The position numbers and the translations under genes were made by a program. A model generated the notes under the pieces. It had not been told where the DNA came from and did not search any database. It was given only the letters and a program-made list of their open reading frames with translations. A stretch of DNA of 64,000 bases from Isoetes taiwanensis (Eukaryota > Streptophyta > Lycopodiopsida > Isoetales > Isoetaceae). Shown here one piece after another: positions 14,917 to 45,662 of this stretch; position 1 is the stretch's first letter; each line of letters starts with the position of its first letter. The stretch is from assembly GCA_021234155.1 (NCBI GenBank), contig JAJEKV010000071.1, positions 2,910,483 through 2,974,482 on the forward strand, read 5' to 3'.

Positions 14917-15808
14917 TCTACTTACTTAAAATGTGTTTGGGGTGTGTCCTCTTTTTTCCGGCCGCATGTGGACATCAAAATCCGGCCAAAAAGCGAAATT
15001 TTGTCATCAGAAAATTAAAATCCAGCGAGAAAAATAACTTCCCCAATATCGCAAGTTTTTCCAACTTTTTATTTCCTCTGCATTCAATTCTTAAACCTAC
15101 GTTTTCTTAAACATACGTTTCCTTCCTCTAAAAAGTGGCGGGATCGTCCTCCTCCAAATCATGATTATTAGTGCCGGCTAATTGTCCGGGAAGAATAACT
15201 TGCTGCAGAAACGTTCTTACACAGCCTCCTTTCATTATATTTTTCCAGCCCATTCTTTGAAATAGCTTTAGGTATCAGCTTCGGCAATCAGCTTCGGCAT
15301 CCAGCAAACGCCAGATTCTTTGCATTCAGGAAGCAGTTGCCACACCAGATTCTTAGCGCCCGGCAGGCTAGAGAGCTTCGGATTCAATGCAGGTACCTTT
15401 CTTTCTCTTTCTTCATGCATGAAACAGAGGATACATAAGAAGTCATTTTTGTTCTTCATTTTATATGTATGCAAGCTCTGTTTCAGAATAATCCCTCTCT
15501 GTTTCTCCAGATTTGAGTTTGCTATTGTGGTTTAGAAAGTGATGATTTGATCTGGGAAACTCCCAAAAAAATTCCGTGCGGTACGTAACGTAAGGCCGGC
15601 CACCGTTACGAAGGAAGGATATGGCGGGGAATTCTCCTTCATTGGTTTCTGTCGCAGGAGCAAATCACAGGAACAGAGATCACAGCAGCAGATCGTAGGT
15701 TTTTCTTTGTTGCTATGGCATTTTTTTCATATTTTTGCATATTTCTCATGCAGTCTTATTCTCTTTTCCAGTTTTTACGTATCCTAATCATTTTCTTTGA
15801 TTTTGCAG

Positions 15809-15927
15809 CTACGATTATGGGTAAAAACCCAACTATGCCATCTCCCTTGATATATGTAAGAGGCTGTAGATCTGATTTCTTTTCCACTTTCAGCAGCAGG
15901 AAAGGGAGGAAGCTTGCAGGTAAATGA
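15809..15927 (+). pseudogene. Exon-like gene fragment inside Helitron H3
   Basis: A pyrimidine-rich run and TTTTGCAG precede an open segment starting MGKNPTMPSPL and containing RGCRSDFFSTFSSRKGRK, ending at TGA after LAGK. A basic patch is the only feature. It repeats at 36028-36143 in copy B with one residue change. It resembles a captured exon with flanking intron, which Helitrons often carry. Parent gene not recognised. Confidence 0.35.
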
Positions 15928-17139
15928 GGTTACAAAATCTTCTCTATGATGCAGATTAACCCTGCTCTTGCAATCTATGAATCAGGAGGTCTCAGGGGAA
16001 GATCTGTTGGTACGGGCCATTCCTCTCCATTTTTAACTTTCTCTTTTGATGTTAAGTCATCTTCTGATCTTCATTCAGGCAGAGGTAAGGGTGTCTTGGA
16101 ATACTTATCATTTATTGAAAACTCCAGTTTTCATGTCCATTTATGGCAAAATCTGGCACCATTTGTTACAACACTTATGTTGAGTGATTGGACAATTTGT
16201 TAAGCCAAGTAGCAGCATAGGGAAAACAAAATTATTTTTACTTGGTATCAAGTCTAAAAATCCTGAAGTTTAATTGTACATATGAACCTATTCATAAAAT
16301 TTGTTAGCAATTAAGTTTTAAAGGAGCTCAGAAGTATGTGCGAGTTTGTCAAGTGGTGCAGCAAATGGCTTATGTCTTATAGGTGAGAACGTTGATAAAC
16401 ATTCATAAGAGTTTGTTGAAGACCTGTTTCAATGCAGGGTATAAAAGAAGATTAAAATACAAGCAAATTGTGTTGTTAATTTTAAGTGGTATACATCTCA
16501 TTCGTGTTGGCATCTAATGTGTCTGTATCTAAGGTGCCTATATGGATATGTAGAGCATGAACATGCAAAATACTGTGTTATCTCCTGTTGTCATTCTCTA
16601 TTATGTTCAATATATCATGGGATAAATAGAAGCGCAATCTTTTCTCGCTGAATTTGTCACAAATTCTTTGTGTAATTGTTGAGGGCTAAAATACAGTTTT
16701 AAGTATTTGACGGTATTTGAGGTTCAAATTGTGGTAACTGGCATTTGAGGTTCAAGCTGTTGTAATTAATCCAATTTACTTGATATTGCTTGCTGGGATC
16801 GCAGTGAAGGGAATGGAGATGGTCCTTTGGTTTACAGATGACCCGCTCCTAGCTAACGGGACGCCCACCTGCAAACTGAGATTTCAGTCCCAACCTTCTA
16901 ATCTCTATTCCCCTACATTTCAGTCCCCCCACCCCCCACCCCCCCAAAAAAAAAAAAAAAAAAAAAAAAAGGGAAAAAGAGAAAAGAGAGCAAATGCAAA
17001 AAACTTTTGCCTCCAAGGAACTTAGAGCAATAATGCAGCTAAAGTTTCCAATGTGTCTTACAAACCTAAAGGTTTTGGAGCCTAGATTTCATTGTTTCTG
17101 AACTTAGAGCCTAAATCATTCTTTTTGTGATTATATTAA

Positions 17140-17330
17140 GATAGATAGATAGTATTTTTACGTCATGCCACATTGGCAGCGTCCATGAGGACATATTACG
17201 GACCCCCAGAGACTTGAACACAATAAATTGAACTATATCCCGTAACCTATTCGAATATTAATATTCCAAAGCGACTTCACCGGGGGTTGAACCTGGAATC
17301 TCCAGTTTCGTGCCTTATCCATTGGGAAGG
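17140..17330 (-). mobile_element. tRNA-derived SINE-like element
   Basis: On the minus strand, AATGGATAAGGCA (17323-17311) fits a pol III A box and CCAGGTTCAACCCCC (17295-17281) fits a B box, about 15-30 bases apart as in tRNAs. The body then runs to a (CTAT)n-like tail at 17152-17140. The tRNA cloverleaf is not intact, so it is not a functional tRNA. Short related flanks (GCCTAGATTTCATTG) lie on both sides. Duplicated at 37323-37513. Confidence 0.6.
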
Positions 17331-17834
17331 AAAGACTTGGAGCCTAGATTTCATTGCTTTTGCAATTTTGGAGCCTAGATTTCGTTGTTTTTATGATTAT
17401 ATTAAAGAAAGACAACGAACAACTGCTAATTTTATGTGCAATCATTAGCTTTTTGGCCAAGCTTAGTTCTAAAGTTAAAGATTGATCTTTTGAAGTTGTA
17501 TGCCTAAGAGGATACTATAGTATAGAGGCAACAATGACTTGCATCTGCGTTTCACTTTTACCTTGGTTACCATATTATAAAACGTTGTTTTCGCTACTGA
17601 AACTCAAAGTTAATACATTGATGATACTTTTGTTAAACAATTTCAATAATGTCCATGCTTGCCAATATCAACATATGCTATTTTGGAAGTAGCACATGTG
17701 GATATTAAACCCGAGTAAAAGCACATGCCCTATTTTGAAAGTTGCACATCTGGATGTTAAAGCGGAGTAAAAGCACATGCCCAGGACATTAGCCCGGCAA
17801 CGCCGGGCACCCGTTTACTAGTAGTTATTGGGTT

Positions 17835-18965
17835 CCAAACATGATAATGTTTTCCACATCCAATAAGTGGATCTACATGATAGCACACAAGTTGCACTTT
17901 GCAAAGTGGTTCGAAGTGGCTATAGTGACATGCTTGAAGTGCTTGCTCCATAGTCTACTGAAGCTGGGTTGAGATATTGCAGGTACCATTAGTTCTCGAA
18001 GCAAAGCATTCACTTAATCCAATATACTCTTCTGGGTACAATGAGATGGCAATCTCTTATCGACAACTATTTTTCCCTGTTGATCTTTCCTACTTTTATG
18101 TGGCATATTCTCAGCATTGAATTCAACATATTTATCAAAAACCTCCCTAGCAGCCAGATCCTAGAAGTTGGACTCAACATGCCATTATTTCCATGTAAGG
18201 CAATTTTGCTCCCCTTTGCATGACTTGCTTGCCAATTTTGCCAAGATGAAATTGGAATGCCATGAATATTTATCCATGCAACTTTACATATCCATGCCCC
18301 TTGCAGTGGGTATCTTTTTTTCTTTGGATATTTTTCATCTTGAAGTGCAAGCTCGTGAATGGAGTACATGTAAGTCCTCCTCTCATATACTCTTGGAAGG
18401 TGGCTCTTACTTCCACCAATTCGTCAATTTCAAAATTCTGAACACAATTAGCCCAACAACATTCCATTCCCCTTACCTTAGCCATAACTTCATGTGAACA
18501 ATCACTACTTGACTTGGACGTCTTGCTAGGATAATGTTTCACCACTGAGTGTGCCCTCTTCTCTGAAAATGTGGTCCCGCGGTTATTGGAGGTGCATTAA
18601 GAAAAATCTGTTATCCACAACCTCCGCTCGGTAAAGAAATTCTCCTATAAACTCAATGCAGGCTATAGGCTATGGCATGATGCATGGAACCTCCAATTGT
18701 TTAATACAAGCAATGCAATCTTGGTGATTTGACCATTTTTCCTTCCATTTTTCTTCTAAACTTGTTATGGCCACATCCACTTTATCCTTTCTAACCTTTC
18801 ATCATTGACAGCTTGGATAGGATCAGCTAGTATGATAGTTCCTTCACCTGCTAGCTCCTTATTGCATTGGTGCTTCACTTTCATCTTCTTATTCTTCCAA
18901 TCCAACCTCTTGTAGAGAATAATTTGCTTAGTAGTCTCAGCCTCAACACCCTTTGGGTGGTCCAC
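17835..18965 (-). pseudogene. Unrecognised minus-strand coding remnant
   Basis: Several minus-strand open pieces seem to belong together: 18965-18765 (MDHPKGVEAETTKQI), 18545-18270 (HYPSKTSKSSSDCSHEV, then MECCWANCVQNFEIDE), 18369-18067 and 17951-17757. They are Lys- and Cys-containing with no domain that I recognise. Copy B (38005-39153) keeps a longer open frame across 38803-38453 because of small base differences, which suggests that one copy's break is recent or an error. It could be a captured host gene or an uncharacterised transposon gene. Function unknown. Confidence 0.4.
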
Positions 18966-19282
18966 ACCATTGAACTACAAGAACAATATTAACAACGGGG
19001 TAACAATGTGATAAGAACATGTGGTAACAATGTTGATACATGTTGGGGTGAAAGGCATTACATTTTTACCCTTTTTAGGATCCACACGCTTCACCTATAT
19101 AAAGTTAAATGTCTTAATATTAGCTCGGAAAAAGGACAAAGTAATTATGAGCATAGATTAAAGGAAACTTCAAAAAATACAAAAAAAAAAACATTAAATG
19201 GGCAAATATATGTTGTAAGTGTAGGCAAAAATAGGTGGTAAGTATAGCTGACGTATAGGTAATTATACAAAATTAATGATAA

Positions 19283-19616
19283 GGGTGCATTCCCATTACG
19301 CTAAAAAATGGCCGGTACCTGTGACACCGTGCAAGTTACAGGTACCGAGGCGCATTCCCATTCTACAACCGGACGCACAGGTACCTGGAACTCCAATTCA
19401 GATGGATTTGAAATTTTCTAAATACCCTAAATCAGAACTGAGTTTGTCTTCTAGCAAGATTTCATTTGTCCTCTTTCTGATTTCGTTTGTCTTCTTCCTC
19501 AGAACTGCCCAAAACACATCACAGGTGCAATAGGAATCGTGATCTTCAGAAACTGGCAATTGGGACCATGAAATCGGTGCATAAAATTGCCGGTGCTGGC
19601 TAATGGGAATACACCC
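19283..19616. mobile_element. Tourist-like MITE (PIF/Harbinger)
   Basis: Terminal inverted repeats GGGTGCATTCCCATTA (19283-19298) and TAATGGGAATACACCC (19601-19616), flanked by TAA on both sides (19280-19282 and 19617-19619). A 3 bp TAA target duplication is diagnostic of PIF/Harbinger. 334 bp, non-coding. It sits between two related stretches (…AGGCAAAAATAGGTGG…), so it inserted in or next to a short tandem repeat. Copy at 39471-39792. Confidence 0.8.
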
Positions 19617-20869
19617 TAACATAGGGTGTATGTAAGTAGTACTAAAGAGTTAAGCATATTGTAATTCTAGAGTATTAAGTATAGGCAAAAATAGGTGGCA
19701 AAAATAGTTTGTAAGTATAGCTGACATCTGGGTAATTCTAGAAAATTAATGATAATCTAGGGTGTAATCAATTCAATAGAATTAATGATAGCTAATTCAT
19801 ATAGGCTATAATTCGTATATGAAGTGATAGAATCATAATTACAACCGTGCCTAACAAGATTGCATATTAAACGGGAGTGTTGCAGCACTCCCGTTTGAAG
19901 ATTCCCTTCTAAAAAACATATCAATTATTTGAAATGGCCATTTTGTGGTATAAGTCCACAAACTCATGGTGATTACAATTTAGTATGTGCTATTTTAGCC
20001 CCCTCCCCCTTTTTCTACTGCTGTGTCTACATATCAAACACTTGAAATGGCAATTTTAGGGGTTAAGTTCAAAACATTAAGGTGATTATGATTTAGTATA
20101 TGCTATTTCAACTACATTTTTATTTTTTCCCACCAAGTTATTATAAACTCAGGACAAAAAGAGGCTTAATTTATAATAGTTCATAAATCAAATTACAAAC
20201 ATTAGACAGAAAGTGCAAGATGTGATCAAGTGGTCAAGCTCTAGATGATTGATACAAGAATGAAGCTTGTGCAAACTTGCCTCATTAGTTTTTTTACATT
20301 GTCAAATAAGCCTTAATGTTCTTCACATTGTCAAATAGGCCTTAATGTTCTTTCATTTGGCAGTCCTCCATCCAAGTGAAAAAAAGGCAGCTTCAAATCT
20401 GTCTGGGTGTATTTAGACTTGAAAAAATTTTACACTTCTACACTTATATTGAAGGCAATTTATTTCAGCTACATTTGTCATCTCCCATTTCAAAGTCTCA
20501 TGTCAATTTTAAATATCCTTATTAAAGAAAATACAGTAACCAAAGATTGAACAACCATTTGGCTCCGACGAAAATGCCAAAATCTTTTCTCAGCTCAAGG
20601 TTGTGACCTTTTGTTGAGCCTTCAGAACAACATTACAAGTGAGGGCAAAAATTATCAACGACTCTCACACAACTCTCAAGCAATCTAATTGACAACTTTG
20701 ACTAAGGGTACCAAATGCATTCCTGTCCCAACTTGCACAGCATTCTGCATTACACTAATGCCGGCATAGGCATCCAGCAGAAGCAAATATCCAGCAAGAA
20801 AATTAGGATTCAGTTTGACAAGCATTCCATACCTAGTTCCATGTTCCCATGCATTTGGCAAGCACTAAG

Positions 20870-21680
20870 CAGAGACATCCAACTGATAACATTTGGCAGG
20901 GAAGTACTCCAAGCATATTTCGGGCCTCTTTCCAACATGCTGCATGACCAAGAAGATCAATCACACAGTTGTAGGCCCACACGACTGCATGCAATGAGAA
21001 TATTGACAAAAGTTGCCTTGTTTGGCTTAATGCCTTCCCTTTGCATATTTTTAAAATATTGTTCCCTTTGCCTTTGCATTGCATATCCATTATTGGCATA
21101 TCCAGTAAGCATAGCATCCCATACCAGACAATCTCAGTCTGATAATCCATTGAATGCTTTGCAAGCCTCATTCATGCAGCCACATTTTGCGTACATATCC
21201 AGAAGGGCAGTTCCAACCACAACATCTGTCACATTTCCTTTCTCAACTATCATCCCATATTTTACGGCACCTGCATATTTTGTGGTACCTGCATGTCGAG
21301 CTGCATATTTTGTGGCACCTACATGTCCACATGCTTTCAGAACGCTTGAATATGTAACTTTGTCTGCTTTTATGTTCATCTTCTGCATTCTATTGAAATA
21401 TTTCAATGCAAGAAGACCACCTTCCGGCTGGGTATATCCAGAAATCATTGTACCCCATAAGACTAAATTTTGATTTGATAATTGATCAAGAACTGTTTGT
21501 GCCTCCTCCAGGCTTTTACATTTAGCATAAACATCAACCAGAAAGCTTCATACAACAATATCAGACAAATGTTGAGTCTTAATAATCTGTTCTTGGATAA
21601 CTCTGCCTCGTTGCATGTCTTCTGCAGTTGCACATGGCCTTAAAACACTGATTCCATCTTGTTTTAGCTCTTTTAGCATG
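20870..21680 (-). pseudogene. Captured PPR gene fragment in the TIR element
   Basis: Minus strand, 5' to 3': FLVDVYAKC, SLEEAQTVLDQLSNQNLVLW, GTMISGYTQPEGG, YFNRMQKMNIKADKVTYSSV, LKACGHVG, GTALLDMYAKCGCMNEACK, then after breaks GIKPNKATFV and WMSLLSACQMHGNMELGMEC. These are ordinary PLS-type PPR words; the parent would encode an organellar RNA-binding protein. The longest frame is 21448-21134. Stops and frameshifts follow. A ~20 bp stretch is tandemly expanded inside (GATKYAARHAGTTKYAGAVKY, bases ~21255-21320). Flanking transposon ends make this a transduplicated fragment rather than a resident gene. Confidence 0.8.
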
Positions 21681-21681
21681 C

Positions 21682-21800
21682 ATGACTGTGGCAAGCAGAT
21701 ATTCAGGCAGATCTTCATGGCAGTGGCAGGCAGATCTTCATGGCCGTGGTGGGCAGATCTTCATGGCAGTGGCAGGCAGATCTAGCATAGATGTGGCCGT
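21682..21800. repeat. Tandem ~22-27 bp repeat (GGCAGATCTTCATGGC)
   Basis: Four imperfect copies of a unit containing AGGCAGATCTTCATGGC between ~21695 and 21790, inside the TIR element next to the PPR remnant. Confidence 0.8.
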
Positions 21801-22109
21801 TGTAGGCAGTTTTGATAGGCATCAGGCATGGGTTTCGAAAGCCATAGGCACACACAGCACAAGGTTCGATAGGCTTAGGCGATGGTTCCGATAGGCAAAA
21901 CTGACAGTAGAGCGAGATAAAAGGGAAGGAGCAATAATTGAACAAGAAAAATAAAACCTAACTAGGTAAAACTACAAATGATCTACACAACCAGGGCTTC
22001 AAATCACGCTACCAGAGCCGAAATAGATCACCATGCCAGTAGATCGCCGGATCGAAAAGGAAGATGCAGGAAAAAAAATTCGCCTCCCCTCCCGTTCAAA
22101 CTAAAATCT

Positions 22110-22989
22110 TATTCTGGAATACAAAGTGTATTCCAGAATACATTTTCCTCTTTCTTTTAGAACCATGACCCAGTATCCCCAATTATCTTGTATCCCCACA
22201 ACAGAAACAAATGACCTACGATGAGAGCATCTTATTCTGCCATCGACCTACAATGAGAGCTACGACTAACCCTAATGAAAAATAATTTTTGAAGGACGCT
22301 TAGCCAGCGCCTTGGCTTAACCTTTAGCTAATGCCATCGCCTTATCCAATCTGAAACTAAAATGGTAGCGCGAGGTCCATAGAGAAAGATCGTCGGAGCA
22401 AAAAGGGCAAAAAAAACAAGTCTCTCTCTTTCTGGAAAAACAAAATGTATTCTGGAATACAAAGTGTATTCCGGAATACATTTCCCTCTTATGATTTGGA
22501 ACCAAGATCCAGTATCTCTGATTTTAAAAACAAAAAAATATCCAAAAAAAAAAAAAAAAAAAAAAAAACAAAATTAAAGGTCATCAAAATAAATTGAAAA
22601 TGCCAAAAAATCTAGTTGTTGTTTGTTTGTTTTTCCCTTTCGCTAATCCCTTCATTATTTATACTTTGTTCCTGTATCCCCGCATAAAAAACAAATAAAA
22701 TCGTAAGGTCATTCAAATCAATTGAAACAAAAAAAAAAATTGCAAGGTCACTGAAAATGCCGAAAACCCGAAAAACCTAGAAAATTGCAAGATCAGTGTT
22801 GAGTCTCAAAAACTTGTACAGCAAAAGTGTATTCCGGAATACACTTTGGACTTCAAGCAAAACCATAAGTGTATTCTGGAATACACTTTGACTTTCAAGT
22901 AAAGAAAAAATGTATTCCGGAATACACTTCTATTATTCTCAAATAGCAAAAGTGTATTCTCAAATAGCAAAAGTGTATTCCGGAATACA
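22110..22989. repeat. Dispersed palindromes TGTATTCCGGAATACA
   Basis: The 16 bp self-complementary word TGTATTCCGGAATACA, or a close variant with CTGGAA or CCAGAA, occurs at about 22111-22142 (pair), 22446-22481 (pair), 22827-22844, 22869-22886, 22911-22927 and 22973-22989, plus a half site at ~22953. Most are flanked by AAAGTG or CACTTT. The core TTCCGGAA is palindromic. The array is confined to the right half of the TIR element. Confidence 0.9.
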
Positions 22990-23491
22990 ATTTTGGTACT
23001 TTGAAATATTATATCATTAAAAAATGGCTCATTGTAACCTAAAAGTACCTTTTCTGGAAAATAATCCAAGCTAACAAAATGTTGTATAGGACGTACACGT
23101 AAATTACTGGTTTACTCTAAAAACACACTTCAGGTAAATTCTAACTGTTAGAAAAAGTGTCACTTTGACATAGTCAATTTTCTCTTTGCACAAAAAAATG
23201 AGTGATTTTGGGGGGGTCAAAATGAAATTTTATGACCAAAATAATTTTTTTACCTCATTTTAGCTCTTTTTTTGGGAAAAAAAAGAATCTTCGAGGAATA
23301 TTCCTTTTGCTCCCATTTCAATGATTTGCTCCCGTTTAATATGCAACCTTGTTGCCTACTAAGTTATACGAAATCTTGCATGCAACTACTATATCTTGCA
23401 TGAAACCCTTCATTCCTTTCAAGCGCCCATCCTTTCTTCCTTCAAGCGCCCATCCTTCCAGCGCCCATCCATCCTTCCTTCCTTCCTTACC

Positions 23492-23926
23492 ATGGGGAGC
23501 CACGCCGCCCAGCCTGCACCATCCCGTCGGACTCGCCTGAGAGAGACGAAGAAGGAGATCAAGAAATTGATCAAGAAATCCATTCCCCCCTCCTGCAGAT
23601 GATGATGTGGCTGCCTTCCGCACCACAGTCAGGATGAATGCGAGTACCTGTTTCTGGAGGGCAAGCTTCGCCCAGGAAATCCAAATCTTAATAGCAGCAC
23701 TAGTAGTCTGACGTCCCCTCACACACCTGCAGATTCTGATGAAGAGCTAGAGAAAGAGGTCAAAAAAATAGAAGAAATAGAGGAAGCAGATGAGGAGTGG
23801 CGCAAAGAATTGGAGGAAGAGAAGAAGCAGATTATCATGAATGCCCTCTCCTCCTCAGATGATGAAGATGTTGCAGAACCCATTCTTGAAGAGATGGCAG
23901 AAGAAAGCGAAGGGGAAGAAGAATAG
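23492..23926 (+). pseudogene. Acidic coiled-coil ORF with internal stops (copy A)
   Basis: ATG at 23492 in a good context (ACCATGG) opens MGSHAAQPAPSRRTRLRETK, then a Lys-rich helix (KEIKKLIKKSIPP). TGATGA at 23600-23605 stops it. The same frame then stays open to TAG at 23924: ECEYLFLEGKLRPGNPN, a Ser/Thr-rich linker, and an acidic heptad-like helix (DEELEKEVKKIEEIEE, WRKELEEEKKQ), ending in EESEGEEE. Between the stops and this part another frame reads PADDDVAAFRTTV, so two compensating small indels (or a short intron) would give one protein of ~140 residues. Copy B at 40163 has the same breaks. Protein not recognised; charged, probably nuclear if real. Confidence 0.5.
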
Positions 23927-24054
23927 AATAGAATAGAATATGATTTTATCGTCCACGGAGACCAACTGGCCTATGGGACCCAAGTACAAAGAGAGAGCAG
24001 CAGGCGTATTACTACCAGGATTAAAAACCCCGCCAAGGGTTTTCGGGAAAAACC

Positions 24055-27000
24055 TTAGTAGCAATAAGGATGCCGATATCTCGCACGCTTATATACATAA
24101 TCACAAGTACAACTAAGGTTAATGCCTGACGGGGGGCATAACCGAGTCCGCGTATCCATTACCTCCCGGAAGGTACGATCCCAACAAGCCCTACAGAGGC
24201 CGTGGCTTCGATAGCTCATGCAAGGCCCGATGGGACACAACTAACCGAAAGCATACCGAGCCCGAATATGCTCGTGCGACGCCGGATAGGCCCGGAGGGC
24301 GTGACTTTCATCCTCAATGGCGCTCTGCTGACAACATTGACGGACTCTGTCCCTCACGCGGCTCCCCGATCCATCTCCCCGTCTCAATGCGGAGGTGGTG
24401 TGCACTGTCGCGAATGGAAGCAATCACCACTGCGCTTTTTCATGGGTAGATGGGTGCACGTGTAGTGGTGTGGGCCCCTCGTGAGCATGGGATTAACCTC
24501 GTTGTCGATAATTTGCCACCTTGACATGTGACGGGGGCCTCTCGCATCCCAAAGCTTGGCCATGAAGCAAGCATCCAAATCTTGCTTCAAGGCGGCGCTA
24601 GCGTTCCTTCCGGTGTATGCACCGGGTCCACATCTCTGTGCTGCACATTCCATAGCGAGAACCACCGGGCTTGCTTGTCTTTCCAAAGCCGGGCTTTGAG
24701 TCGCCAAGGGCCCATCGCCACGCCAAAGCAAGGTTGGGCAGCCGGGCTTCATCCATAGCCACCACCTTCGGAAGTAAATAATGTGACGTTCCAAATAAGA
24801 CCCTCTCAGAATGGAAGGAAGCATGTCTCCTAGAGCAAGATCTGATATGGGACCGTGGATTTCACTCCCGTGCTCGGGCCAAGAAGGCCTTCAGACTGCT
24901 CTAGATCGTTCCAAGTGGTGAGGGATATCACCGCCCCCACACTTCTACCCCATAGAGGAGGACCGGTTCAACCAAGGCCCTCGAACAAGTGTGCCTGGTG
25001 ACCCCATGCATACTGACTACGCCTTGTGATTGTTGTTTTGCATTGCATACATGGCTTTCCGGCCTGCGGTGACCCGTAACGATGGATGCATCCCAAAGTG
25101 TGGTAGTAGAAAACTCAATGCCCAAATACTTATAAGATCGAGCCACCTCCACTACACTGCCCCGGTAAGTGAATGAGGGAAGCGTGGGTGCGGATGATGG
25201 GACCAGCGGTACCCTTTGTCTTGGCCAAGTTAACTCTCATGTCGCTGAATTGGCGTAAAGTGTCCAAAGCGTCCGGTGGCGTTGCATGTCCTCCTCGGGT
25301 ATATGCGAGCAGGTCAACATCATCGGCATATATGAGTTGCGGATTATGTGGTGCATCAACCGAAGCGCCTCCCCGTGCTTTCGAATAGCCATTCTTCTAG
25401 CTGGTCAATGTACAAGCCGAAGAGCCGCGTCGGGGATAGAGGGCAGCCACCGGCGCACCCCAATGCTACTAACAACAACGGGCTCCCCCGATTAAGGAGA
25501 GACGGCCGGAGCAAGCCTCCTCAGATAGTGCAGATATAGCATTCTCGCAAGTCGACGGGGTCCCTAGTCTGTCTCAATCTATCCCACAACTTATCCCGAG
25601 GCACCGCGGTCAAAAGCCTTTGCGAAATCCACAAAGCAACAAAGATGCATTCTCAAGGCCGATTACGGCTATCCTCTATGAGTGTTCGCAGAGTGAAGAT
25701 ATGGTCAATAGTAGAATGCCGGGGCGAAGCCTGCCTCAAGGCGAGAGCCCGCGACTTCTCCATCCTCTCGCCCAAAGTGTCAATCGCCGCCAAGAATCCC
25801 AAGCAACTTGGCAAAGACAGGCCCGACCATAATGGTACGATAGTTGGCGGGCTGTGGGGGTCCCCTCGCTTTGTATATGGGCACAACTCTACCGGTAGTC
25901 CGTCGGCGGGGAAGCCTTCTTGCAATGCCTTGTTGAAGAGTCTTTGGAGAACCGCACCATTGGGGCCCGCCCCACTTGAGAAGCTCTGCCGCATACCATC
26001 CAAATCTGGCCGCCTTCCCCTTAGGGCTTAGGGCGCTACCCAGCCCATTATGACATCCCTTCATGAATGACCCGGTGCTAGGCCTGCGGAGAATGGAGGT
26101 ACTGGTGCCGGCTTCCCATTGGGTCATCACCGCCGCAAATTATCTCACCCATTGTTCCGGGTAATATTTCCCGTGGGTCGTGGCGGGCTTACTCAAGACC
26201 TTTCTCCGTAAGGCCCTAGGGTGGCGGGCCTAGAAGACCAAACATCTTCTTTGGGTGCTCGCAAAGGTACCGGCTTTCTTGGTTTTGAGGAAGGAGCGGT
26301 ATTGACGGGACGGCTCTTGGGCGAATGGTGGGGTCCAAAGACTTGGCGGAGCCATCGTTTCAACTCCCGACATTCGTCATCGAACCGGTGATTGCGAGGG
26401 AAGGTGATTGCAGCCCCCGTGGATCGCCGAGGCGGCCTCTCCCAAAGCATCCGCCCCTACCCTCGGAAGAGCCGGTTCACCGTGGCCGTCTGGCGCTGAA
26501 GTGTGGGGAGTTGCGAGCACTTCCGCAGCTCATACTCAAGCATCCTCGCATAGACCGCCGCATGATCACAACCGTGGTACATGGGGTGTTGGGGCAATGG
26601 GTGCTCGGGTTGGCTGCCAATCTATCTGCAAGAACAGGCTGATGGTCGGAGTCTACTTCCTCATCCCGGCCACTGTCCCGACAATCGGCGCAGTGATCAA
26701 GTGTAGGCATTGCTCGCCCGCTAGCACGTAATCCACCACACCGGTGCCCCCCCGGTTCTCTCCCGTCTACAAGTGAAGCGGTGGAGGGGACGCCATCATG
26801 CCGACCCCATTGCAAATGACCGTGTCAAAGATATCGCCCGAAAGAATAAAGAAATTTCGCCGCCATACCGCGGTCACTGGGCGTCATCCGGCGCCCTTGG
26901 CCAAACCATCTCTCCGGGTCCATTTGCAACACATCCTCGCCTAGAGGTGCGAATTTTGGGATCCGCCTCGGTCCCTCGCGGCGCGCATTGAAGTCTCCAA

Positions 27001-27435
27001 GCAACATGACCTTGCCCAATTATACATGACTGGCGTATGTCATCATATAGATCGACATAGGGCTCCCCGCATCCACATCCAAGTGCGTGTTGTAAAAGTT
27101 GCTCTCGGCATGTGGGAAGTAGCAAGCCACCACAAAGAGGGGCTGCCATCGCCGTTTCGCACTCGCATACCCGCATTATCTGTTGTGCACGCCCGCCTTT
27201 GCACAAGGAGACCGATTGGGCCAAGGTCGCCCGGGTAGTAACACGCACCTCCTCGGTCCTCGTTTCCCGCATTCATTGAAGACTGAGTAGCGCCGTATCC
27301 CTCGCAAATCGGTAGCCTCAGGACCAAAGATGTTCCCATGTTTCCATGAGGAAGATAAGGTCCATGTCCATGGCGACGGAATTGAGATCCCCCCTTCGCC
27401 ATGGAAAGCCACGGCAATTCCGAATACCCACCACG
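24055..27435 (-). pseudogene. LINE ORF2 (APE endonuclease + RT), broken, copy A
   Basis: Non-LTR retrotransposon ORF2 on the minus strand. EN: NCRGFP near 27420, MDMDLIFLMETW-type sequence, LLGDFNAR near 27005. Linker: RNHRFDDECRELKRWLRQVF (26411-26350). RT: LQRLFNKALQEGFPADG, NYRTIMVGPVFAKLLG, RHSTIDHIFTLRTLIED, then LIYADDVD near 25330 carrying the catalytic YADD, SYKYLGIEFSTTT (25130) and ALVEPVLLYGVEVWG (24975). The C-terminal part is Cys/His-containing. The enzyme would nick DNA and copy its RNA by target-primed reverse transcription. Many small indels break the frame, mostly in GC-rich CNG contexts. The 3' side meets a (GAATA)n run at 23921. Confidence 0.8.
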
Positions 27436-29011
27436 CCAGGCACGATCCCTATTTAGTGGCATGCATCGCCACCGAGGTCCGTGGTAGTGGTGGTCCTGTG
27501 GGGGCGGAAGATGTGGATGCCGTGCATTTGGGCCCCCTCGAGGGGACTCGAGGGGCGGAGTGCCGGCATCCCCGTTTGGTTGCCCAATTCCCACATCCTT
27601 CCCCGACCAGCCCCGCCCCCCTCCATGTCCGCGGCAGTCCCTCGACTTTGGCCAGCTCACGCCCGGGTCTCTTGTCGTGGCCGGGGTCAAGTCCCGGTCA
27701 ATGTCTGAGTCCGCCCCTTCAACGTCCGGCCCGACGCAGATGGCCACCCGCCTCGCACGCTCTCAACCGTGAAGATAACCACCCGGGGCGATCGGTGGCT
27801 GAATTCCATGGCGACTTCGCGGTCCGCAGTCTTTGGGAACATCATCCGGTCCAAGATGCGTATGCGGAGCTCCGAAGTGAGATGTTCTCCGACTCCTCCG
27901 CCGGGCCTCGCACTACCACATTGCGGCTCCTGCGTCTCGTTCCCGGAGTTCGGCGGGGGCCGCACCCGGTGTTGGTTGAGGTGGGTGAGGCATAGGTCAG
28001 GCCGGGCGCCCGGGTGGCGGCCAGCGTGATCGATAATGTCCGCGGCATGTGTTCGGGGTTGGCGTCTGGCGTAGGTTGGTGGGTTCAGCGGGGTTGGTAT
28101 GTTCTTTCTTTGTGGTTTTACGTTCTCCGGTCACGGGCTCGGCTCTTGCGGGGCGTTGTCATGTCTTGCCATCTCCAGCGTGCAATGGCGGAGTTGCTCA
28201 TGTGCCTCGGCATGGAGGCCCTTGCCTTGCTGGGCAGCGGCCGCCCGCCCGAAACTCTGTAGCTCCCGATCGTGCTAAATCCTTACTCCGGCGCTCATTT
28301 TACGCACGGCTAGCTTCCAAAGCGGCTGGAATCCTTGTCTCCCGCGGTGGCGGCCTCCGCGGCTTTGTGGCCAGGAGGGCGACTTTGTGCTCCTCGTCGC
28401 CGTGGCCTTAGCCTCCTCAACCTGCGGCTGGATCGAGGCGAGGGTTTACAGTGTCTCTGCTCTACCGGTTCACATCCTGCGTCCCGGCTTCCATAAACGT
28501 CCAACCGCGGTGTCTACACGCCCCTCATATCGCAAGCTCCTGGCCGGGTATTGCCAATGCACAAATTGTAGCAAGTGGATGCTATCATCCGCACGTCGTG
28601 CGCGATCCTCCAATTACGTGATTCGTCGTTTTTCCGGCACCAATCTGCTGCGCAACATCCAGAGATGTTATGTTCTCCACCACCTCGTCGGGGAGGCCTG
28701 CAAAGGCGTGCTTCGCTGGCCTCAACCCTTGCCCGGATCGCGGCTCCAAGGTTCGACCGGGCGGATTGCTGTATGGCCCTTTGTCGGGTCGGTAGGGCCT
28801 TGGCTCGGGCCTCCCTCTTCATGGAAGACGTCTCTCCCTCTGCCCGAGGCCTCTTCCTTGGTGGCCCCGCTTCATTGTCTTCCCCAGAGGGCTCTGCCTG
28901 CGTGGGGGTCAACCGGTGGTTGGTGTGTTTGGGCCTTCCCAGGATGGGTTGGTGTGGTCTGAGCTCACCAACCAAGTGTGGGTCCACACACGGGACTGTG
29001 TCTGTGGCCAT
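27436..29011 (-). pseudogene. LINE ORF1, broken, copy A
   Basis: Upstream of ORF2 on the minus strand. A likely start is ATG at 29011 (MATDTVPCVDPHLVGEL), followed by a nuclear-localisation-like GPPRKRPRAEG. The rest is Pro/Arg/Gly-rich and repeatedly frameshifted. I see no clean CCHC knuckle. Position and composition fit an RNA-binding ORF1 of the LINE. The order (5' repeats, ORF1, EN, RT, simple-repeat tail) is that of a full-length element. Confidence 0.6.
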
Positions 29012-29063
29012 GACTTGGGGTATGACTTGGGCGACGACTCCTGGATATCTGGTGTGTACCGGC

Positions 29064-29755
29064 TGCCACAAAAACCCTAGCATAGTTCAGAAAAGTGCAG
29101 ATTTGAGCACTGAAACAAAGACAAGCATGCAGGTATCATACACCGTTAGAAAGCTCCTTGAACCAGCTTTCCAACAAGCCCAAGCACATGAAAATCGGAC
29201 ACTGGATGTGAGAGATACAGTCCGTTGAAGTGTCTACCGATTGCCACAGAAACCCTAGCACACAGCCCGGAAAAGTGCCAATTTGAGCACAGAAACAAAG
29301 CCAAGCATGTAGGTACCATACACCGTTGGAAAGATCTCTGAACCAGCTTTCCAACAAGCCCAAGCACATGAAAATTTGACACCGGATGCGAGACATATGA
29401 CCGATCAAAATTCTGCCACAAGACGAGACCAATCGAATACTTACTAAAACATACGCCAATCCCTATATTGGTGTCAGACTTTCATCAACAACACCATCAG
29501 GAACTAGGGTATGAATTAGTAAAACATTCTCGTAACCTTCAATAAGAGTACAACACACACCTTTCAACACCGCGTGGCCAAGGCCAACAACGGCATCAGG
29601 CGAGGGCTATACTTCTCAAAGAAGGAAGAAGAAATGCTGCCACAAAAACCCTAGCACACAGCCCCGGAAAAATGCGGTGATTTGAGCACTGAAACAAAGA
29701 CAAGCATGCAGGTATCATACATCGTTGGAAAGGTCTCTGAACCAGCTTTCCAAAG
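29064..29755. repeat. ~180 bp tandem units at LINE 5' side, copy A
   Basis: 29064-29242 and 29243-29413 are adjacent copies starting GCCACA[A/G]AAACCCTAGCA and sharing GAACCAGCTTTCCAACAAGC and CCAAGCACATGAAAAT. A partial third unit is at 29638-29755 after a ~220 bp spacer. They lie immediately upstream of the LINE ORF1 start, where some LINEs carry promoter monomers. Confidence 0.85.
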
Positions 29756-30430
29756 AGGAGGACGAGGAGGATGAGGGCTTTTTTTTTTTTGTTATTTTAT
29801 TTTTAGTTCAGGAAAGCGAGCTGGGCATCTCCAAAAAAGGCCTCACCTGAAGATTTTGAATGGAGCTAGGCATCTCCTTAAACTGCCTTGAACTTTTGTT
29901 ATTTTGGATGAAAGAGCTGGGCAACTCTAATAAAAGGCCTTCCTTATGTAAAATATTTTTCTGATAATATGAAGACTTAATTCTTTTAATTTGTTTCTGT
30001 AGTTTCTACTCTCACTTTAATTTCTACTCTTAATTTAATGATGTACTTTAATTTCTTCGGAAATTGTTTTGAATTCTCGCTTTTTCAATCTTAGTTTTGA
30101 GAGAGCTCAACTTAATTTTGAAATCACGCCAGTCGCGAATTAAGTTTGTGTGCAAAATGTTTAAATTGCAAAGTAGTCCAATACACGTCTGGCATGAATT
30201 GCATAGAGTAACTAGCTTTCTTATCTTAATATTAATCTCTTACAACAAAGACTTCTGCTAATTCTATTAATGCATTCAAAGAGTTTAAACTTTAAATTAG
30301 CATCTGCACGTCCATGCAACGTCCATGATAATTCGTTAATCCATGCATCTACACGTCCATGATGAACCTCTTTCTGCACTTCATTTCTTTTCGGTACACA
30401 TTTCTTTCTTTTTCCACAATTTCTAGAGTT
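29756..30430. other. Non-coding stretch
   Basis: Contains a GAGGACGAGGAGGATGAGG purine run, poly-T (29780) and three imperfect GAGCTGGGCATCTCC/GAGCTAGGCATCTCC/GAGCTGGGCAACTC repeats (29818-29930). No gene recognised. Confidence 0.5.
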
Positions 30431-30449
30431 CATCACATATTATTTTTGC

Positions 30450-30775
30450 GCCCCGCAATGCCGGGCAAAAGAGGCTGCAATCTGCAAAACATATACTTCA
30501 ATTAAAACCATCATTCAAATAGTTTTAGAATATGTCTTAATTTTGGGACAAAATTAGATTGATACTTTTTGCCGCCGTTGCCACTTTTTCTTTTCCCGCC
30601 CGTGTGCTTAAAATTGTTTGATTTCCTTTCCCTCGCGTCACGCCCGTTTTCTTTTTTCCACTTTTGTTTTCCTCCCCTTTTTTTTCTTTCCTTTCCCATT
30701 TCGTTTTTTCCCCTCTCCCATTTTATTTTTCATTTCCGCCAGATTAAACTTCCCTCTCCCATTTCGTTTTCTTTT
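30450..30775. other. Imperfect Helitron-like hairpin followed by pyrimidine tract
   Basis: GCCCCGCAATGCCGGGC at 30451-30467 differs by one base from a perfect stem and has the same GCAAYGC core as the proven Helitron ends, but no CTAG lies ~10 bases away. About 120 bp to the right, a C/T-rich tract (30585-30775) begins. Copy B has the same at 47041 onward. It may be a decayed end of a third Helitron type. Not proven. Confidence 0.3.
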
Positions 30776-30784
30776 CTGCCCTAG

Positions 30785-30960
30785 CATGGAGCGGATATGG
30801 CATGAAGTAGCGGGTATGGACAGCAAAGGATATGGCATGAACATCAGCGGATATGGACAGCAAAGAATATAGCATGAACAACAGCGGATATGGCATGAAG
30901 TAAGGTACAGAATATGGCTGCAGTATGAAATATGATATGAAATAGCATACGCAAAACGGC
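30785..30960. repeat. GGATATGGCATGAAC minisatellite, copy A
   Basis: Imperfect repeats of GGATATGGCATGAA or GGATATGGACAGCAAAG, several in a row. Copy B at 47379-47535 has slightly different unit lengths. Confidence 0.75.
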
Positions 30961-31591
30961 AGAAGAAGGTGGATTTTGCAAACAGTAGAAGAAGATGGCC
31001 AAATTTTGGAGCGAAAGACAAGCATGGAAAATCGGACTTGGAATGGGGGTTTTGTGCAGTTTTGTTTCAGAATACTTGCTTGGATTATAGTCAATGATTA
31101 AGTAGCACCTATGATGATTTGTCTATAAATTGTTAAATGAGTTTTGCTCTTCAGCATTAGCAATATGCAACGAGCATGCTTCTGTGTTGGAATTGGAGCC
31201 AATGTTTAATAATCCTTTTTTAGCCACTTCTGTAGGAGAATTAGATGGAAAATAGAACTGCAATGAGCCTGTGGTTTCATGTGTTTCTTCAAATAGCAGG
31301 GGATTACTAATCATAAGATATATGCTTTTCTCAGTGGCCAAGATCTGCAGCATGTTGGGCCGTCTCTGGTGTCTCTTAGGCTCTGGTGGTTTGTATTTTT
31401 GTGCATGCTTAAATAAAAAAATATGGGAAGACTATGTAGATATGGCCCTCATTGCAGATATCAACAATGGCAATCACAGGTGCGCAGGTGAGCAAAACAG
31501 AATAGAAATCTATATTTGATGGGGTTATAAGATTCATAGTCTATTTGATTTTCAAGTTACACAGTTATACATTTTCAGACGAAATTTATAG

Positions 31592-32074
31592 ATGATGTTC
31601 TTGTCTGAAGGTAGTACAATAACACCAGGTGCTGAAGAAGATGAAGAAACAGGGGCTTTGGAGCAGATTCAAGCAGTAGAGATTGAAGAAAATGGGGCTC
31701 CATTTTCTGGTCGGATTTTGAGCCCTATAAGGTTTTCTTTTGGTCTTCTTTTGTATTATCTTTCAAAGATCTATAAACTTTTGGGTACACTGGTTGTGGT
31801 GCTGCGAAAGTGTCATATTACTCTGTTTCATGAGACATTGGAAGCCTTTTCATGGTCTGAATATATTTATTCTTCTCAAGTTGTCATATTTCTTGCATTT
31901 ACCGCACTCAGGACCTTTGTATATGGTTATTTCTTTCTTTCTAGTCTGGGATTCAACCCACTGTGGAAGAAAGTTGTAACTGAGATGCAGATTTTGCAGC
32001 TATTTCTGAGTCTTATAGCATCTGCAGCTCTTTTGTATCTCCAGTATAAGGAAGGGAAGAATGTTCAGGGCTAG
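31592..32074 (+). pseudogene. Membrane-protein fragment, copy A (CASP-like?)
   Basis: A 160-residue frame: acidic N-terminus (GAEEDEETGALEQI), a hydrophobic segment around residues 50-70 (SFGLLLYYLSKIYKLLGTLV), then a Ser/Tyr stretch SWSEYIYSSQVVIFLAF and VYGYFFLSS forming a second likely membrane span, and LFLSLIASAALLYL near the end. The spacing loosely recalls CASP-like (DUF588) four-span proteins, but that is a weak impression. Copy B (48263-48703) reads differently at the end (DADFADYFSSLIASA) through small indels, and there a CASP-like reading is somewhat better. No convincing start or promoter. Probably a captured fragment. Confidence 0.4.
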
Positions 32075-32457
32075 ACATATGCATATATAATAGTTTCAAC
32101 AATCTGGTATTGTTGCTTCTGTTGATGATGAATACAGAAGGAATTAGTTGGTCTCTGTTACTTCCAAAAAAAAAAGAGATTAAAAAAGAGTAATCTGGAA
32201 CTGCCATCCATAGCTCACTCATCTCAAACAGGGGTCGGAGCAGATCCATCGGTATTATTGCAAAGGGAACGTATTGAAGCTAAGGTTGGTGAAGAAGATG
32301 GCGCTTTGAATAAGAGTTGCGATTACATGATCTAAAAAAGGATGGCAGTTTGTGGGTTCCCAATTGCACAACAGTCTTAAACTTTTCTACATTCTAAAGC
32401 ATCAGTTACGCCACAGCTACACGTAGAAGCGTGACTGTTGCACTAATGTAGCTCGTG

Positions 32458-32478
32458 AAATCGCGCTTGGCGCGATTT
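32458..32478. repeat. Perfect 9 bp hairpin (AAATCGCGC/GCGCGATTT)
   Basis: Arms 32458-32466 and 32470-32478 with loop TTG. The same hairpin is in copy B at 49083-49103. No CTAG follows at Helitron distance. Confidence 0.8.
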
Positions 32479-32655
32479 AACCCTGACGTCTTGTCACAAT
32501 TTTATCTTCTAGAGTGTTTTTTAAGACATCACCTTTATTAATTGGGGGCAGCTTTATTTGGCTAAAATACTACAAGGAATTGGTAAAAATATGTGAATAT
32601 ATTTAGATATTGGAGTGATTTTATGTATTATATATTCTAATATTTGCTTGATTTC

Positions 32656-32783
32656 ATTAAATAAGTGATTATTTTCTTTGTAATGTCAATATATAAATTG
32701 TTATTTCAAGTATATTTTTATTAAATAAGTGATTATTTTATTTGTAATGTCAATATATAAATTGTTATTTCAAGTATATTTGT
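32656..32783. repeat. Two tandem 64 bp AT-rich units, copy A
   Basis: ATTAAATAAGTGATTATTTT begins both 32656-32719 and 32720-32783. Copy B has the pair at 49269-49396. Confidence 0.9.
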
Positions 32784-33110
32784 TGTTGTGATGTCAGATT
32801 TTGTTGATGTTAAGTTCAAGCAAATAGGTCTTTCCCTTGCCTTATTTAACGCAAATGTGAAAAAGGTAACAAAATATACAACATACACTACAGTTTTTTA
32901 AATGCAAAAAATGGAATTAAAAACCATAAATGCACTGAAAATAATGCTTATGTGGCGTGATTTTGGAATAGACATAATCCCAAAATCTTATATTATAATG
33001 TTGTGTAATGGACCGCACCCTAAATCGGACGGTCGAGGATTTGATTGATCAATGGTGGAGATGATGTGTGCGTGTCTTCAACTAAAATTTCATCTTGACT
33101 ATGGCTTCAA

Positions 33111-34983: not shown

Positions 34984-34993
34984 AAGGTTCCTA

Positions 34994-35030
34994 ATTTATG
35001 CCTCCAAAGAAGGTCGGGTACCATTACTAG
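34994..35030 (+). mobile_element. Helitron 3' terminus, type 2, degraded (copy A)
   Basis: CTAATTTATGCC, a disrupted stem, then GGGTACCATTACTAG with CTAG at 35027-35030 followed by T. Copy B (51642) has the intact stem. Here the CCCAGC and GCTGGG arms read CCTCCA and GGTCGGG. Confidence 0.7.
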
Positions 35031-35158
35031 TAAATGAATAATGGTTTTAAAAGTAAAAGCAAAGATAGGCAAGCTAACATAAATGTTGATAATGTCGAGC
35101 TTGTTGTGGAAGATGAAGTCGTTATTTCATGGGCAAACTTGTGGGAGAGGTGCTCGGG

Positions 35159-35406
35159 TTATAGCATATTAGGGTGTGCCTAAAAAACTACACAATTGTG
35201 TATTTTCTGTGTATTTTTAGCAAGTACACATTTGTATTTTAGAGTACATAAAAGTCCTTCTTTACTAAAACTAATTGCGCTATCTTCAAAGTGACATACT
35301 TTTTCAAGTCAACAAGATGGCAAGAACCCAGCTAATATCATCATCTTTAACTACCTAGGTACTTTCCTGATATGTGCCAGAATAGGCACACCCTAACATG
35401 CTATAA
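35159..35406. mobile_element. MITE with 23 bp inverted ends, copy A
   Basis: TTATAGCAT…GGGTGTGCCT (35159-35181) and its inverse (35384-35406) differ at one base. 248 bp, non-coding. Target duplication not clear (GTGCTCG/GCGCTCC flanks are imperfect). Copy B at 51777-52024. Confidence 0.75.
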
Positions 35407-35899
35407 CGCGCTCCTCCTTTTGGTGACAGTATAAGAGACGACTAATATCTCTGGAGTATCGAAATACTATGAGAGTTGTGTTCATGGTGTTCATCCCAAG
35501 TCCTTGTGGAAGTGCAATCATTAATCAAAGCTTAGCAAGCTCAGCTGAAATTGATTGTTGAGGACTTCCAACTTGTTAAGCTTTAGAATGCACGAAAGAC
35601 TACACCCAGGTTTGGAAAAACATGCTAAAAATAAACGAATTAAATTGAATAGATTGTAATTGAATTTTAATAAGGTGGAGGCAATTAAGCAAAAATATTC
35701 AAACATAAATGCCTTGAAGGGCTGCCTAGGTCGAAGCATATTTCCTTCGAAGGTGGCCTCTGATGGGTTCTGTATTAATCACTACAAAAGGATGCTTGCA
35801 TTTACTTTTTCTCTTGATATTGTATTGCAAATTGTTTCTAGATAATACTAAAAGGTCTTCCTATGAGCATATCTATTTGATAACTTCTTGATATAACAT

Positions 35900-39153: not shown

Positions 39154-39470
39154 ACCATTGAACTACAAGAACAATATTAACAACGGGGTAACAATGTGAT
39201 AAGAACATGTGGTAACAATGTTGATACATGTTGGGGTGAAAGGCATTACATTTTTACCCTTTTTAGGATCCACACGCTTCACCTATATAAAGTTAAATGT
39301 CTTAATATTAGCTCGGAAAAAGGACAAAGTAATTATGAGCATAGATTAAAGGAAACTTCAAAAAATACAAAAAAAAAAACATTAAATGGGCAAATATATG
39401 TTGTAAGTGTAGGCAAAAATAGGTGGTAAGTATAGCTGACGTATAGGTAATTATACAAAATTAATGATAA

Positions 39471-39792
39471 GGGTGCATTCCCATTACGCTAAAAAATGGC
39501 CGGTACCTGTGACACCGTGCAAGTTACAGGTACCGAGGCGCATTCCCATTCTACAACCGGACGCACAGGTACCTGGAACTCCAATTCAGATGGATTTGAA
39601 ATTTTCTAAATACCCTAAATCAGAACTGCCCAAGATTTCATTTGTCCTCTTTCTGATTTCGTTTGTCTTCTTCCTCAGAACTGCCCAAAACACATCACAG
39701 GTGCAATAGGAATCGTGATCTTCAGAAACTGGCAACTGGGACCATGAAATCGGTGCATAAAATTGCCGGTGCTGGCTAATGGGAATACACCC
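39471..39792. mobile_element. Tourist-like MITE, copy B
   Basis: Same inverted ends and TAA flanks (39468-39470 and 39793-39795) as 19283-19616, with a 12 bp internal deletion. Confidence 0.8.
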
Positions 39793-45610: not shown

Positions 45611-45662
45611 GACTTGGGGTATGACTTGGGCGACGACTCACGATATCCGTGTGTGTACCACC

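What the first reader, a model, noticed from the sequence alone, without database searches (positions are those of the whole stretch)
19853..23353. Presence/absence TIR transposon with a clean empty site in the same window
25 bp inverted ends, GCCT duplicated at both flanks, and a single GCCT in copy B at 40025. It therefore moved after (or differs between) the duplicated copies. The terminal structure (end repeat immediately followed by an 11 bp hairpin repeating its inner half) and a 4 bp target duplication do not match the common plant superfamilies that I know.
Basis: partly seen in the sequence, partly recalled or inferred. Interest (0 to 1): 0.75.

Follow-up and report, generated by a model that had tools for sequence, protein, structure and literature searches.

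The report
Passenger copy of a lycophyte transposon
A 3.5-kb stretch of a quillwort-like plant genome is a jumping gene that has lost its own engine and carries a scrap of a host gene; its apparent engine, found elsewhere in the same genome, pairs a transposase-like gene with a bacterial-type DNA-methylating enzyme.

Summary
Window 19853-23353 is a 3,501-bp TIR transposon: 25-bp ends (24/25), GCCT on both sides, one GCCT in the tandem copy at 40025-40028. In the host assembly (1.66 Gb; statistics fit Isoetes taiwanensis) the TIR occurs 1,883 times at <=2 mismatches (reversed control 0). Of 19 complete elements read, 18 have an exact 4-bp duplication of varied sequence. Ends are shared, interiors differ: the window copy holds a PPR-gene fragment. 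Two complete 8-kb relatives have similar TIRs (1-3 differences), the left-end hairpin, 4-bp duplications and TATTCCGGAATA palindromes. They encode a DUF7869 protein with candidate DDD residues and, on the other strand, an N6/N4 DNA methylase gene with a weakly supported ParB-like part. The pairing recurs: 22 divergent pairs among 150 DUF7869 hits, 0.4 neighbours expected. The window element is most likely a non-autonomous, gene-capturing member of this family, not hAT, MULE or CACTA. Closest in print is Sola1 (4-bp duplications; an Ectocarpus Sola1 carries a ParB-methylase gene); homology to Sola1 transposase could not be tested. That the methylase acts through the palindromes is a hypothesis.

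The parts
19853..23353 (+). Non-autonomous TIR transposon, 3,501 bp, inserted in tandem copy A
   Evidence: filled versus empty site; no match to the family's transposase proteins inside it (tblastn)
19849..19852 (.). Left target-site duplication GCCT
23354..23357 (.). Right target-site duplication GCCT
19853..19877 (+). Left TIR AACAAGATTGCATATTAAACGGGAG
   Evidence: I10, 96% complementary; 1,883 genomic sites at <=2 mismatches
23329..23353 (-). Right TIR AACAAGGTTGCATATTAAACGGGAG (read on the minus strand)
19869..19896 (+). Left-end hairpin: inverted second copy of the inner TIR half; seen, with at most small changes, in the 21 left ends printed and in both complete 8-kb relatives
   Evidence: (I25)
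23310..23318 (-). Direct second copy of the inner TIR half at the right end (CTCCCATTT); also in C, absent from the right end of A
19853..20228 (+). Left conserved end (about 376 bp shared by the family)
23115..23353 (+). Right conserved end (about 240 bp); 82% identical to the right end of complete element A over 227 columns
22110..22987 (+). Eight TATTCCGGAATA palindrome cores at <=1 mismatch (22110, 22129, 22448, 22467, 22830, 22872, 22913, 22976); none in the other 60,499 bases of the window
20229..22097 (+). Interior specific to the PPR-carrying subfamily (inferred captured DNA)
21134..21547 (-). PPR-repeat ORF, 137 aa, fragment of a host-type gene
   Evidence: PF13041 3.9e-15
40025..40028 (.). 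Empty site: single GCCT in tandem copy B
15681..35900 (.). Tandem copy A, about 20 kb, holding the element
35897..52517 (.). Tandem copy B, about 16.6 kb, without the element
18229..18929 (-). Relic similar to the N-terminal ORF of the diverged transposase-like ORFs in L031, about 0.9 kb from the insertion (copy A)
38412..39117 (-). The same relic in copy B

Best explanation
The window element is a non-autonomous, gene-capturing member of a large DNA-transposon family. It moves by cut and paste when a transposase supplied by other copies acts on its ends. Shown: shared TIRs and end regions, a 4-bp duplication, the empty site, different interiors between shared ends, and complete 8-kb relatives with similar ends. 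Inferred: the DUF7869 protein of those relatives (candidate catalytic aspartates in DGMDQ, LDNTT and GHTHDQID) is the transposase. It recognises the 25-bp TIR plus its inner repeat, makes a 4-bp staggered cut in the target, and acts on the window copy in trans. The relatives' second gene, on the opposite strand, encodes an N6/N4 DNA methylase with a probable ParB-like part. Its likely role, by analogy with the Ectocarpus Sola1 proposal, is to bind and chemically mark element DNA. The nearest described superfamily is Sola1.
For: TIR abundance: 938 + 945 sites, reversed control 0 + 0. Complete elements: 15 of 20 fetched loci plus the window, plus C908, A and C. Exact 4-bp duplications in 18 of 19; L012 differs at one base. 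Autonomous-type elements: A = C1081, 7,978 bp, AATT|AATT; C = C1034, 8,046 bp, AATG|AATG. DUF7869 E = 4.8e-51 (A), 4.4e-51 (L032), 1.5e-51 (C). N6_N4_Mtase E = 2.7e-16 in C, 60.6 bits against a cut-off of 26.7; the leftward ORFs of A gave no Pfam hit but match those of C at 61-65% identity. ParB hits are weak but fall on the corresponding region in both elements (TIGR03764 0.0021 in A and 0.041 in C; phrog_723 0.39 in A). Links between the window copy and A/C: right end 82-83% identical to A and B, 77% to C over about 225-250 columns; the same palindromes; the same left hairpin, in A with an inner arm that matches A's own TIR variant. L021 and L015 still read, about 370 bp from their right end, a tail (DGINEEKDAIEPSLNTPQTFVHN) like the C-terminus of the A transposase (DGINEHEDVLDPSLITPHTFAHN). 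Of 20 DUF7869 loci sampled downstream, 5 end in this TIR at <=4 mismatches. Gene pairing: 24 of 150 DUF7869 hits have a methylase hit within 15 kb, 22 divergent, 17 of these 4.7-5.6 kb apart; 0.41 expected. Of 100 listed exact TIRs, 3 lie 6.5-7.5 kb from a methylase hit in the geometry of element C; 0.27 expected. Superfamily: Sola has DDD transposases and 4-bp duplications (PMC10741241, passages); Ectocarpus Sola1-1 carries an opposite-strand ParB-methylase gene (PMC12477816, passages).
Against: The window copy has no transposase sequence; the link rests on ends, hairpin, palindromes and the ORF tail of sister elements. The complete elements are only 77-83% identical to the window copy at the right end, so its actual helper may be another, unsampled copy. 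None of the 100 listed exact TIRs lies within 15 kb of any of the 150 listed DUF7869 hits (both lists are capped, 100 of 1,883 sites and 150 of 9,903 candidates). In 15 of 20 sampled DUF7869 loci this TIR was not found at <=4 mismatches: five of these end in a related AACAAAG-type sequence, the rest were unresolved. The right end of A lacks the direct inner repeat. Homology of DUF7869 to Sola1 transposase was not tested. No transposition was observed. ParB hits are far below curated cut-offs.
Confidence: 0.85

Rival explanations
1. The family belongs to a distinct, unnamed superfamily that shares with Sola1 only the 4-bp duplication and the ParB-methylase gene.
For: The transposase ORFs hit only DUF7869 in Pfam; the A ORF hits nothing in NCBIfam, PHROGs or PDB sequences. 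A held-library search for DUF7869 gave 0 papers. ParB-methylases are reported from other algal transposons too.
Against: Duplication length, DDD-type motifs, gene arrangement and the listing of Sola1 for a moss (PMC9033089 table) fit Sola1.
Confidence: 0.25
2. A MULE, hAT, CACTA, PIF/Harbinger or Ginger derivative with misjudged ends.
For: A MULE transposase fragment lies in one fetched locus, L019 (PF10551 8.2e-14); gene capture is known from Pack-MULEs.
Against: 18 of 19 elements have exactly 4 bp duplicated, with near-identical termini. MULE is 7-12 bp, hAT 8 bp, CACTA has CACTA/CACTG ends with 3 bp, Ginger TG..CA ends. The MULE-like stretches in L019 lie about 3.7 and 7.6 kb from the left end and no MULE hit appeared in the ORFs of A and C that were scanned.
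Confidence: 0.03
3. The presence/absence pattern is an assembly effect: two haplotypes placed in tandem, the element being a heterozygous insertion rather than one that postdates a true tandem duplication.
For: Copies A and B abut (35900/35897), with only 14 mismatches in 2,902 columns in the block left of the site; nanopore-based assembly (if the species is right).
Against: The block 23353-31187 is only 90.7% identical, although much of that is indels. The element and its duplication are real either way.
Confidence: 0.35

Closest known systems
Sola1 DNA transposons, in particular Sola1-1 of Ectocarpus (PMC12477816) and Physcomitrella Sola1 (PMC9033089 table)
   Same: 4-bp target duplications and DDD-type transposase (as given for Sola in PMC10741241); in Ectocarpus Sola1-1 an opposite-strand gene with a ParB-like and an N4-cytosine/N6-adenine methylase domain
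   Different: About 8 kb rather than 21.5 kb; vascular plant; arrays of 16-24-bp palindromes; many derivatives with different interiors. Transposase homology not tested.
Pack-MULEs and giant non-autonomous elements (as cited in PMC12477816)
   Same: Shared ends around non-transposase, host-type sequence; presumably moved in trans
   Different: 4-bp duplications, AACAAG ends and a DUF7869 partner; not MULE
CACTA/hAT elements with subterminal repeat arrays (recalled, no call)
   Same: Arrays of short repeated motifs inside the ends, probable protein-binding sites
   Different: Here the repeat is a 16-24-bp palindrome, often at 42-bp spacing; ends and duplications differ

Membership tests
Sola1 | 4-bp target-site duplication | tested here: met
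   18 of 19 complete elements exact; criterion from PMC10741241 passages
Sola1 | DDD transposase | tested here: inconclusive
   Conserved DGMDQ, LDNTT, GHTHDQID in A, B and C; D281/D361/D403 in the element C ORF; catalysis not shown; the third motif is not intact in L013
Sola1 | Sequence homology to described Sola1 transposases | not testable with these tools
   No Sola1 sequence was at hand; no Sola-named hit in the libraries used
Sola1 with accessory gene (Ectocarpus type) | Opposite-strand N6/N4 DNA methylase gene | tested here: met
   PF01555 2.7e-16 in C; 22 divergent pairs among 150 DUF7869 hits
Sola1 with accessory gene (Ectocarpus type) | ParB-like domain in the same gene | tested here: inconclusive
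   Weak hits to the corresponding region in A and C; that ParB-like and methylase ORFs are one gene is inferred from order and strand
MULE | 7-12 bp duplication and MULE transposase | tested here: not met
   4 bp; transposase ORFs hit DUF7869 only
hAT | 8-bp duplication | tested here: not met
   criterion
CACTA | CACTA/CACTG termini, 3-bp duplication | tested here: not met
   Termini AACAAG..CTTGTT, 4 bp
Ginger | TG..CA termini, TIR 40-270 bp | tested here: not met
   Termini AACAAG..CTTGTT, 25-bp TIR; criterion
Pack-type (gene-capturing) non-autonomous element | Host-gene fragment inside, no transposase | tested here: met
   PPR PF13041 3.9e-15; no transposase match inside; 9 of the 13 best distinct places of the fragment lie within 8 kb of a family end, 4 not linked; intact parent gene not identified

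The most novel reading that the evidence does not exclude
The element family carries its own DNA-marking system. The ParB-like methylase binds the 24-bp palindrome AAAGTGTATTCCGGAATACACTTT, arrayed at 42-bp steps as a parS-like site, and places 6mA or 4mC on element DNA in a vascular plant. Non-autonomous copies keep the palindromes because they need the mark to be moved or to escape silencing. Supporting facts: 5,235 palindromes at <=2 mismatches in the genome, control 0; on contigs C1-C135, exact palindromes lie within 2 kb of 6 of the 7 listed methylase hits, against 0 of 3 listed DUF7869 hits and 1 of 7 listed exact TIRs; 9 of 16 short spacings equal 42 bp; 4 of 11 palindromes in A and 6 of 12 in C lie between the two divergent genes.
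Probability: 0.3. Interest if true: 0.85.

Novelty: new variant of a known kind. Interest (0 to 1): 0.6.

Why it matters
It turns an odd 4-bp-duplication element into a member of an abundant transposon family in an early-diverging vascular plant. That genome holds bacterial-type N6/N4 DNA methylase sequences at 150 or more places (some broken by stops), at least 22 of them paired divergently with a DUF7869 gene, and the family spreads host-type gene fragments. A question raised for algae (do ParB-methylase transposons mark their own DNA?) becomes directly testable in a land plant, with a concrete candidate binding site.

Tried and rejected
Rejected: hAT, MULE, CACTA, Ginger (membership table). 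LINE-, Helitron- and Ty3-like ORFs in L018, L020 and L016 (recognised by eye; the one L020 ORF scanned gave no Pfam hit) and the MULE hit in L019 were taken as nested or neighbouring insertions. C908 (10.97 kb) was tried as the autonomous element: no transposase hit in the five ORFs scanned. C907 (16.2-kb pair): the first 10 kb shows a family-type left end and a diverged DUF7869-like relic (weak: tblastn 3.8e-5, local profile 4.3e-8); the rest was not fetched. A 6-bp duplication reading was rejected on the other copies. Rfam and tRNA scans of the window were empty. Structure prediction was not run: the transposase loci came from the fetch from genomes, which is not on that tool's list of allowed sources.

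Limits: both 150-hit lists are the best of 9,903 (DUF7869) and 1,442 (methylase) first-look candidates; TIR and palindrome listings show only the first 100 rows. The methylase family also rings in 11 of 14 control genomes, as expected for a bacterial family. Of 40 left-end matches (window's own included), 20 others were fetched; in 5 of those (L014, L019, L020, L027, L028) no right TIR was found at <=5 substitutions, and they were left out of the duplication count. In element B (L032+L035) no left end was found. Similarity to the last 427 bp of A was strong in 5 of 20 DUF7869 loci (L048, L049, L050, L052, L055), partial in L054 and weak or absent in the rest. The intact PPR parent was not identified.

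Papers: PMC12477816, PMC10741241, PMC8566536, PMC9033089, PMC12730594 and PMC10294476 were seen as passages only; others as search listings; Iyer 2011 and Petroll et al. only as references in a passage. Absence from print rests.
Full report
1. The observation. The two flanks belong to adjoining tandem copies (15681-35900 and 35897-52517). The block left of the site is 98.7% identical, 14 mismatches in 2,902 columns. From this site alone the duplication could be 4, 5 or 6 bp; other copies were needed.

2. Where it is. The window lies in an assembly of 1,658,258,908 bases in 1,110 contigs. The Isoetes taiwanensis assembly is reported as 1658.30 Mb with 204 scaffolds plus 909 contigs, from nanopore reads with polishing (PMC8566536 passages). 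That species is an inference from these numbers.

3. Other copies. The first 300 bp found 40 scored left-end places, 86-100% identical over most or all of the query, out of 1,257 first-look candidates, plus one 28-bp hairpin match. The TIR at two mismatches or fewer occurs 938 + 945 times; the reversed pattern 0. Twenty copies besides the window's were fetched. Fifteen of these and the window have both TIRs at <=5 substitutions; C908, A and C add three more. Of these 19, 18 have an exact 4-bp duplication and L012 differs at one base. The duplicated words vary (GCCT, AGAG, GTGA, TAGT, AAAA, AATT and so on), without a fixed motif. Termini are near-identical, and the left hairpin is in the 21 left ends printed, with one- or two-base changes in loop or arm in some.

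4. Interiors differ. Relative to the window copy, the elements share about 376 bp on the left and about 240 bp on the right (108 bp in L017). Six elements (window, L009, L010, L011, L012, L016) share the PPR interior; L009 is 98.15% identical to the window copy. L023-L025 share the right third but not the middle; L015, L018, L021, L022 and L026 share the ends and small palindrome-bearing pieces. The window interior encodes a PPR fragment (PF13041 3.9e-15). L017 holds a bHLH-like fragment at 20.1 bits, just under Pfam's cut-off of 20.7. C908 holds ORFs with weak matches only, mostly TPR. Of the 13 best distinct places of the PPR stretch, 9 lie within 8 kb of a known family end; four (C1030, C15, C790, C907) do not, and of these C1030 and C790 were asked for but not obtained; the remaining places, at 67-77%, look like members of the large PPR gene family. 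Capture of host sequence is therefore likely, though the parent gene is not pinned down.

5. The likely engine. A DUF7869 ORF beside element L013 prompted a genome search: 150 hits over the cut-off, of 9,903 candidates. Two complete elements were read. A (C1081) is 7,978 bp with AATT on both sides. C (C1034) is 8,046 bp with AATG on both sides. Both have AACAAG TIRs (1-3 differences from those of the window copy), the left hairpin (in A its inner arm matches A's own TIR variant; in C the AAACGGGAG core pairs), and 11 and 12 palindromes at <=1 mismatch. Rightward they encode the DUF7869 protein (E about 1e-51) with conserved DGMDQ, LDNTT and GHTHDQID. Leftward a second gene, read only as separate ORFs whose joining is inferred, encodes a ParB-like region (weak) and an N6_N4 DNA methylase (in C: PF01555 2.7e-16; CcrM model 5.2e-10, below that model's cut-off; MboIIA structure 1g60, 2.5e-6). 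The methylase family has 150 hits over the cut-off, of 1,442 candidates. Of the 150 DUF7869 hits, 24 have a methylase hit within 15 kb, 22 divergent, 17 of these 4.7-5.6 kb apart, against 0.41 expected. Of 100 listed exact TIRs, 3 lie 6.5-7.5 kb from a methylase hit in the orientation of element C (0.27 expected), and none lies within 15 kb of a listed DUF7869 hit.

6. Tie to the window copy. Its right end is 82-83% identical to A and B over about 225-250 columns and 77% to C. It has eight copies of the palindrome core; the rest of the window has none. Sister elements L021 and L015 keep a tail like the last codons of the transposase ORF near their right end. Of 20 DUF7869 loci sampled, five end in this TIR at <=4 mismatches, five in a related AACAAAG-type end, the rest unresolved. 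DUF7869 thus spans several lineages, and the closest helper of the window copy may be unsampled.

7. How it works. Most likely cut and paste in trans by the DUF7869 protein at TIRs with an inner repeat, with a 4-bp stagger. The palindrome arrays (31-34-bp steps in left arrays such as L021; 42-bp steps in 9 of 16 short spacings) look like protein-binding sites on one face of the helix. They are tied to the methylase gene: 6 of 7 listed methylase hits on contigs C1-C135 have an exact palindrome within 2 kb, against 0 of 3 DUF7869 hits and 1 of 7 exact TIRs there. I propose, as a hypothesis only, that the ParB-methylase or the transposase binds them.

8. Known or new. Sola elements have DDD transposases and 4-bp duplications (PMC10741241). 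[quoted passage not shown] Sola1 is listed for Physcomitrella (PMC9033089). The window element is therefore best described as a gene-capturing, non-autonomous member of a Sola1-like family, with the superfamily name unproven. In the ten searches listed under Tried and rejected I found no report of this gene pairing in a vascular plant; the held library lacks most subscription papers.

Noticed in passing
window 24000-29000 versus copy B about 40700-45700: The tandem copies differ by 18-44 gap openings per 500 bp in this GC-rich stretch, more than in most other bins (0-12, up to 24 around 31000-34000); this looks like unpolished long-read error rather than biology.
   Followed up: partly
window 18229-18929 and 38412-39117, minus strand: Relic similar to the N-terminal ORF of the diverged DUF7869-like element in L031 (E = 1e-45 and 2.7e-61), within 1 kb of the insertion site in both tandem copies.
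   Followed up: yes
window 31592-32071 and 48248-48703: Fatty-acid elongase ELO gene fragment (PF01151 1.1e-16 for the first), duplicated in the tandem; the second was not scanned.
   Followed up: partly
L031 (G000:C907:16509801-16519800): Strongly diverged DUF7869-like element with a family-type left end, possibly another transposase lineage under the same ends.
   Followed up: partly
L041, L043, L044, L045, L051: DUF7869 elements ending in ...TTTAAACTTTGTT (TTTAGACTTTGTT in L051): a sister lineage with AACAAAG-type TIRs.
   Followed up: no
L019 1624-2127 and 5322-5988, minus strand: Two copies of a MULE-transposase-like stretch (PF10551 for the first; the second, 5689-5988, is alike by eye but gave no Pfam hit), apparently nested in or beside a family element.
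   Followed up: no
window 41618-42037, minus strand: ORF with a YADD reverse-transcriptase-like motif (recalled motif; no Pfam hit), possibly a LINE remnant in the GC-rich part of the tandem.
   Followed up: no
window 12251-15593: Another repeat pair (12251-13001 and 14837-15593, 93%) just upstream of the tandem duplication.
   Followed up: no
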